From: Promethearchaeia archaeon
GTDB taxonomy: Archaea > Asgardarchaeota > Lokiarchaeia > Sigyniarchaeales > SOKP01
DNA: 64,000 nucleotides
NCBI GenBank assembly: GCA_029856125.1
Contig: JAHQWJ010000062.1
Span: forward strand, 62,001-126,000
Direction of reading: 5' to 3'
A program made the position numbers and the translations under genes. Numbering within the stretch: position 1 is the first letter of the stretch; each line of letters begins with the position of its first letter. Below, in pieces: positions 44,636-45,247 of the stretch. Below the pieces are notes generated by a model, which worked only from the letters and a program-made list of their open reading frames with translations, did not search any database and was not told the origin of the DNA.

Positions 44636-45247
44636 ATGGGAAGAAGGAAACGTAAACAACAATCATATAAAAGAGTTAAGCGAGTTCCAAAGATTTTCAC
44701 GTGCCCAAATAACTAAATGGATACCCCATTTAATATGGATTGCGGTGAAAAATCTGTCAAGGTTAAGAATATTCGGAAAAGCTTAATTGCCACAGTGAAG
44801 TGTGGTCATTGTGGCTTAACAAAGGATGTTTTAATTAATTCTATATCAGAACCGGTTGATGCCTTTGGAGATTTTATCGATATTCATTACGCTGATCAGG
44901 AACTTCAGAGACTAGAAAAACGCATAGAGAAACTTAAAAAGAAAAATGAATGGGGGGAATTAGTTCTAGTTTATTCTATTTTATCGGATATTTGCAAAGC
45001 TAAAGCTGCAGAGGCCTTAGAAGATGAAGATAATGTCAACCTTGATGTAGTTAATAAATGGAAAATTAGAGCGGAAGAATATAAAAGGTTAGGAAAGGAT
45101 GCATTACTTCAACTAGACTCTCTTGAGTTAGAGAAAGGAATTAAAACAGATGACGAGTCTTTGTTTACAGAGCACGACGAGAGTGACATGAAGAGGGAAA
45201 AAAAAATCGAAGATATTTTTGACGATCCAGGCTTTCTTGAATTCTAA
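44636..45247 (+). CDS. Elf1-like transcription elongation factor with acidic C-terminal extension, interrupted by a 30-nt in-frame insert (putative BHB intron 44711-44740)
   Basis: ATG at 44636: MGRRKRKQQSYKRVKRVPKIFTCPN, then NAC TAA; the same frame resumes CGEKSVKVKNIRKSLIATVKCGHCGLTKD...EPVDAFGDFIDIH. The ORF track only lists 44717-45247. Confidence 0.82.
44711..44740 (+). other. Putative archaeal BHB-like intron (30 nt) in the Elf1-like gene
   Basis: Hairpin TAAATGG (44714-44720) / CCATTTA (44726-44732); proposed bulges AT|A (44709-44711) and AT|T (44739-44741); central helix CCAA/ATGG with one A-A mismatch; outer TGC/GCG. Excision gives TGC CCA AAT|TGC GGT = CPNCG. Confidence 0.62.

What the first reader, a model, noticed from the sequence alone, without database searches (positions are those of the whole stretch)
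44711..44740. Second mini-intron (30 nt) splitting the CPxC zinc ribbon of the Elf1-like elongation factor
Seen directly: MGRRKRKQQSYKRVKRVPKIFTCPN is followed by AAC TAA and the same frame resumes as CGEKSVKVK...CGHCGLT. Removing exactly 30 nt rebuilds TCPNCGEK, the first half of an Elf1 zinc ribbon. The insert contains a perfect 7-bp hairpin TAAATGG/CCATTTA. With cuts after 44710 and 44740 the structure matches a relaxed BHB: AU|A and AU|U bulges, central helix with 3 of 4 pairs, outer TGC/GCG. Two independent stop-containing, hairpin, multiple-of-three inserts in one 64-kb window suggest a recurrent class of element rather than random damage.
Basis: partly seen in the sequence, partly recalled or inferred. 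Interest (0 to 1): 0.9.

Follow-up and report, generated by a model that had tools for sequence, protein, structure and literature searches.

The report
Tiny spliced introns in Lokiarchaeal mRNAs
A 30-base piece carrying a stop codon interrupts the only copy of a basic transcription gene in this Lokiarchaeal genome (a relative of the ancestors of eukaryotes), and comparison with dozens of related genomes shows that it behaves as an intron cut out of the messenger RNA by the tRNA-splicing machinery, something the papers I could search report in archaeal coding sequence for one other gene only.

Summary
The only Elf1 gene of this Lokiarchaeal genome (44636-45247, +) is interrupted at 44711-44740 by 30 nt with an in-frame TAA, inside the CPxC zinc ribbon. 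The same site is empty in about half of related genomes. Elsewhere it holds inserts of 28, 30, 31 or 32 nt, mostly not multiples of three, in an otherwise intact gene, so the insert must be removed before or during translation. Across 24-25 distinct variants the BHB register is the best-paired one, the central and inner helices covary, and the exons flanking the insert pair more strongly (by synonymous changes) than in insert-free relatives, including 8 of 8 closely related pairs. Presence changes at least 11 times on the gene tree. The genome encodes a crenarchaeal-type two-subunit splicing endonuclease and the ligase RtcB. The 'first' mini-intron is at 11143-11175, a strict BHB in an alpha/beta hydrolase, also patchy, with 31-nt frameshifting variants. 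No RNA data were available, so splicing is inferred. The only coding-sequence mRNA BHB intron in the held literature is crenarchaeal cbf5. These are two further genes in another phylum: new members of a known kind.

The parts
44636..44710 (+). Elf1-like gene, exon 1 (25 codons, MGRRKRKQQSYKRVKRVPKIFTCPN)
44711..44740 (+). 30-nt BHB-type mRNA intron with in-frame TAA (44714-44716)
   Evidence: empty or 28/30/31/32-nt versions in relatives
44741..45247 (+). Elf1-like gene, exon 2 (CGEKSVK...FLEF, stop)
   Evidence: public records call only this part, as a 176-aa ORF starting inside the intron
44702..44708 (+). BHB 5' side: outer TGC 44702-44704 and central-helix strand CCAA 44705-44708; 5' bulge is 44709-44711 (AT^A)
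44712..44734 (+). BHB inner helix inside the intron: ACTAAATGG 44712-44720 with CCATTTAAT 44726-44734 (8 of 9 paired)
44735..44744 (+). BHB 3' side: central-helix strand ATGG 44735-44738, 3' bulge 44739-44741 (AT^T), outer GCG 44742-44744
11024..11142 (+). alpha/beta hydrolase gene, exon 1 (MHSVEKLF...CHPHP plus part of Q)
11143..11175 (+). the 'first' mini-intron: 33 nt, TAA at 11156, strict BHB (central helix TCCT/GGGA, bulges CA^A and AA^G)
11176..11710 (+). alpha/beta hydrolase gene, exon 2 (YGGDMYNNVV...)
55704..57176 (+). RtcB tRNA-splicing ligase, the only copy in the genome; proposed to join the exons

Best explanation
The 30-nt insert is an intron of the Elf1 pre-mRNA. In the transcript the exon ends and the intron fold into a relaxed bulge-helix-bulge: an exon-exon outer helix, a 4-bp helix between the end of exon 1 and the 3' end of the intron, and an intron hairpin. 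The two-subunit tRNA-splicing endonuclease EndA cuts after the second base of each 3-nt bulge. RtcB then joins the exons, restoring CPNCGEK and a full Elf1 zinc ribbon. Shown here: the insert, its precise absence or frameshifting length variation in relatives, the covarying BHB fold, intact exons under coding constraint, a single gene copy, and the presence of EndA and RtcB genes. Inferred: cleavage by this EndA, ligation by RtcB, and translation of the spliced mRNA.
For: Single copy in the genome. Same site empty, or filled by 28, 30, 31 or 32 nt; 15 of 24 variants are not multiples of three, yet both flanks stay open and rejoin as 192-194 aa. Over 25 distinct variants the predicted register has outer/central/inner pairing of 100/79/76%; slid registers mostly fall to 24-71% and none matches it on all three helices. 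Two central and three inner pairs beat all 2000 shuffles; central pair 3 exists as A-U, G-C and U-A and pair 4 as A-U, G-C and C-G. The exon-exon duplex is stronger with the intron (mean -10.0 vs -5.7 kcal/mol) and in 8 of 8 close pairs. Exon 1 keeps a similar synonymous/nonsynonymous ratio with and without the intron. The catalytic EndA resembles Aeropyrum EndA (1.7e-33) and keeps the triad and the loop lysine; the second subunit lacks the His; two EndA genes are the rule across the order. RtcB is present. A second gene shows the same pattern with a strict BHB.
Against: No transcript, cDNA or peptide was available. In the window the fourth central pair is an A-A mismatch (relaxed BHB), and one subgroup (CCAG/CTCG) has a C-C mismatch in the middle of the helix. 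Only two such introns were found in about 94 kb of well-compared sequence, and none in 88 ABC and radical-SAM domain matches, so no general class is proven. Parts of the outer-helix sequence are also fixed by the protein code.
Confidence: 0.93

Rival explanations
1. Translational reinitiation: a 26-residue upstream peptide ends at TAA and the ribosome restarts at the overlapping ATG (TAAATG), making a shortened Elf1 that lacks the first zinc knuckle.
For: In the window ATG GAT... is in frame with exon 2, and public gene calls use it.
Against: 10 of 24 variants have no start codon in frame with exon 2 inside the insert. It does not explain pairing between exon 1 and the insert end, the stronger exon-exon helix, or why exon 1 keeps the CPxC sequence of the full protein.
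Confidence: 0.03
2. Programmed ribosomal bypassing (hopping) over an untranslated hairpin, as in phage T4 gene 60 or yeast mitochondrial byps.
For: Short hairpin insert of variable length; in several g16 genomes the codon before the insert and the last codon of the insert match (GAA/GAA), by eye.
Against: Take-off and landing codons do not match in the window (AAT/GAT) nor in most variants. Bypassing does not predict a covarying 4-bp helix between exon 1 and the 3' end of the insert in a fixed 3-nt-bulge geometry, nor compensatory synonymous changes in the flanking exons.
Confidence: 0.02
3. Pseudogene or assembly error.
For: The genome is a MAG with 6% estimated contamination.
Against: Found in dozens of independently assembled genomes at the same base, with exons intact; no intact second copy in G000. 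One genome (G068) with both an intact and an interrupted copy has them on different branches, as expected of a mixed bin.
Confidence: 0.02

Closest known systems
cbf5 (dyskerin homologue) pre-mRNA intron of Desulfurococcales and Sulfolobales (Crenarchaeota); PMC2738675, citing Watanabe 2002 and Yoshinari 2006
   Same: Short intron inside an archaeal protein-coding gene; relaxed BHB; cuts between the second and third bulge residues; heteromeric EndA; patchy presence with lineage-specific loss; introns of one origin with variable interior.
   Different: Other gene (transcription elongation factor Elf1, plus an alpha/beta hydrolase), other phylum (Lokiarchaeia/Promethearchaeota), far more turnover (at least 11 changes among 56 sequences), and no cDNA proof yet.
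BHB intron in the 5' UTR of HVO_1309 mRNA of Haloferax volcanii (PMC7714728)
   Same: mRNA substrate of archaeal EndA outside tRNA and rRNA.
   Different: Lies in the 5' UTR and does not interrupt a reading frame.
Archaeal pre-tRNA BHB introns at position 37/38
   Same: Same topology: exon-exon outer helix, exon 1 pairing with the intron 3' end, intron hairpin, 3-nt bulges.
   Different: Host RNA is an mRNA, and the exon pairing strands are coding sequence.

Membership tests
EndA-dependent BHB intron | Two 3-nt bulges separated by a 4-bp helix at the exon-intron borders | tested here: met
   Strict in the hydrolase (4 of 4 pairs in every variant); relaxed in Elf1 (3 of 4 in the window, 79% of pairs over 25 variants)
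EndA-dependent BHB intron | Cuts after the second bulge residue restore the reading frame exactly | tested here: met
   The Elf1 frame is restored in every variant and matches empty-site relatives; the hydrolase too
EndA-dependent BHB intron | Structure maintained by compensatory change | tested here: met
   H3, H4, i1-i3 exceed all 2000 shuffles; exon-exon duplex
EndA-dependent BHB intron | Cell encodes an endonuclease able to cut relaxed BHB, and a ligase | tested here: met
   Alpha-type EndA with triad and K58 aligned to Aeropyrum K44 plus a His-less partner; RtcB. Genes tested; specificity itself not assayed
EndA-dependent BHB intron | Spliced RNA observed; cleavage by EndA in vitro | not testable with these tools
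Group I or group II self-splicing intron | Catalytic RNA core (hundreds of nt), Rfam match | tested here: not met
   30 nt; no Rfam match in the window
Spliceosomal intron | GU...AG ends and branch site | tested here: not met
   Inserts start AA/TG/AG and end GAU/GAA
Programmed translational bypassing | Matching take-off and landing codons | tested here: not met
   AAT versus GAT in the window; matches only in a minority of variants

The most novel reading that the evidence does not exclude
Asgard archaea of the Lokiarchaeal order carry a set of miniature EndA-spliced mRNA introns at highly conserved coding motifs (here the Elf1 zinc knuckle and a hydrolase HPHPQ-YGG motif) that are repeatedly and precisely lost or gained, implying an active route of intron turnover (cDNA recombination or reverse splicing) and a second, non-spliceosomal mRNA-splicing system in the closest relatives of eukaryotes.
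Probability: 0.45. Interest if true: 0.9.

Novelty: new member of a known kind. Interest (0 to 1): 0.8.

Why it matters
Archaeal introns inside coding sequence have rested on one crenarchaeal gene (cbf5): a 2020 study still names it as the only other reported BHB intron in an archaeal mRNA (PMC7714728), and I found no report from Asgard archaea in the open-access papers searched. Two further genes in Lokiarchaeia, with dozens of natural presence/absence pairs, make intron gain, loss and function in archaea directly testable. They also show that protein sets of Asgard genomes, widely used to infer the origin of eukaryotes, contain truncated calls for intron-bearing genes: Elf1 appears as a 176-aa ORF.

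Tried and rejected
(1) Pure structural scan for BHB sites that restore frames: over 250 chance hits in 64 kb, so structure alone is no evidence. (2) BHB plus pentamer coding score on 145 kb: did not recover the two true introns, not usable as a finder. (3) Coding-periodicity scans against syntenic relatives over the contig: interior stops other than 11156 and 44714 looked like ordinary gene ends on inspection; one search was swamped by antisense signals. (4) Search for interrupted ABC and radical-SAM domains genome-wide: 0 of 88 matches carry a stop, so introns are not pervasive. (5) Hope for spliced metatranscriptome proteins: the closest full-length database protein is only 95% identical and could come from an insert-free relative. 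(6) Rfam and tRNA scans of the window: nothing. (7) The exon 2 substitution counts are spoiled by an indel and are not used.

Full report
What is there. The window lies in a Lokiarchaeal MAG (G000, 3.69 Mb, 99% complete, 6% contamination; the named relatives are Lokiarchaeota). At 44636-45247 (+) is the genome's only Elf1-family gene (PF05129). After 25 codons ending ...FTCPN the frame reads AAC TAA; removing 44711-44740 rebuilds a 193-residue Elf1 protein with the first zinc knuckle CPNC. The Pfam score is 38.5 bits for the internal ORF, 49 bits for the interrupted read-through and 67.1 bits for the joined protein.

Comparison with relatives. In the same genus the site is empty in many genomes and occupied in others. 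Across the order (82 genomes) and after fetching loci, inserts occur in four genera of one family (g1, g12, g15, g16), always between the codon after CP and CGEK. Lengths over 24 distinct variants: 28 nt (1), 30 (9), 31 (11), 32 (3); 15 of 24 are not multiples of three. All rejoin to open proteins of 192-194 aa; one reads 177 aa because the fetched stretch is cut. A frameshifting insert in an otherwise conserved single-copy gene must be removed before or during translation.

Gene tree. On an Elf1 protein tree built without the insert (56 rows, 29 with insert), presence/absence needs at least 11 changes, 7 forced by well-supported branches; insert-free L012 is nested in the 32-nt clade, and sister pairs such as L161/L177, L153/L166 and L054/L043 differ. 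The tree cannot tell gain from loss in general, and gene transfer is not excluded; L012 is best read as a precise loss.

The RNA fold. The topology is that of archaeal introns: outer helix between exon 1 and exon 2, 4-bp central helix between exon 1 and the 3' end of the intron, inner hairpin in the intron, 3-nt bulges carrying the cut sites. In the window: TGC/GCG, CCAA/AUGG (3 of 4), bulges AU|A and AU|U, and ACUAAAUGG/CCAUUUAAU (8 of 9). Over 25 distinct variants the fraction paired at the predicted register is 1.00 (outer), 0.79 (central) and 0.76 (inner); no slid register by 1-3 nt matches it on all three. Central pairs 3 and 4 and inner pairs 1-3 exceed all of 2000 shuffles; pair 3 appears as A-U, G-C and U-A, pair 4 as A-U, G-C and C-G, following the codons for Pro and for Asn/Glu/Gln in exon 1. 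The exon 1-exon 2 duplex is stronger in insert-bearing genes (mean -10.0, n=25) than in insert-free ones (-5.7, n=23), and in all 8 closely related pairs compared, through synonymous codon changes such as TTC ACC versus TTT ACA. The variants are related by descent, so shuffle counts are not strict probabilities; the pair comparison answers part of that objection.

The second example. Fourteen genomes (the window's own included) carry 33 nt, two carry 31 nt (frameshift), and G007, G024, G021, G019, G016, G020 and the outgroups have none. Its central helix TCCT/GGGA is complete in all variants, with bulges CA|A and AA|G or AA|A: a strict BHB. Both introns sit in a highly conserved motif of their gene.

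Machinery. G000 has two EndA genes. One (200 aa) matches the Aeropyrum pernix EndA entries 3p1z and 3ajv at 1.7e-33, keeps the aligned Tyr, His and Lys, and has a lysine (K58) aligned to the loop lysine K44 that gives crenarchaeal EndA broad specificity. The other (201 aa) has Asp at the His position, as expected of a structural subunit (background in PMC6379350 and PMC12397907). Two EndA genes are the rule across the order. RtcB is a single gene inside this very window, 55704-57176. The cbf5 introns likewise need the heteromeric enzyme (PMC2738675).

How common. In about 94 kb of the contig compared with good coverage only these two were found, and none of 88 ABC-ATPase and radical-SAM domain matches in the genome is interrupted. 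So the introns are recurrent but sparse.

What remains inferred. No transcript or peptide was examined. Cleavage, ligation and translation of the joined mRNA are inferred. Reinitiation at the ATG overlapping the stop works for the window but fails for 10 of 24 variants; ribosome bypassing lacks matching codons in the window and does not predict the covarying fold. Group I/II and spliceosomal introns are excluded by size, ends and the absence of an Rfam match.

Relation to what is known. It is a BHB intron of a pre-mRNA, a known kind that the held literature reports inside coding sequence only for crenarchaeal cbf5; searches for Asgard cases found none. The library holds open-access papers only and no preprints, so priority is not established.

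Noticed in passing
L163, L164, L184, L185, L186 (genus g10: G041, G045, G042, G043, G044): Elf1 in this genus is a 253-261-aa protein with two zinc-ribbon matches in one frame, about 34% identical to the window's Elf1: a domain-duplicated or extended form, not an intron.
   Followed up: partly
window 55704-57176: The only RtcB ligase gene of the genome lies about 10 kb downstream of the interrupted Elf1 gene, on the same strand.
   Followed up: partly
G068: L157 and L176: One MAG holds both an intron-bearing and an intron-free Elf1, on different tree branches; with 9% contamination it is probably a mixed bin.
   Followed up: yes
P0049 and related 176-aa proteins: Public protein sets carry the intron-bearing Elf1 as a truncated ORF starting at an ATG inside the intron, lacking the first CPxC; other Lokiarchaeal genes may be misannotated the same way.
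   Followed up: partly
window 32643-32678: A 36-nt stretch absent in G011 and G014 inside ORF 32050-33030; it keeps the frame open, so probably an ordinary in-frame indel.
   Followed up: no
G000:C42:35988-36683: An ABC-transporter domain is split into two matches within one open frame (positions 2-52 and 48-137), suggesting an in-frame insertion in the domain.
   Followed up: no
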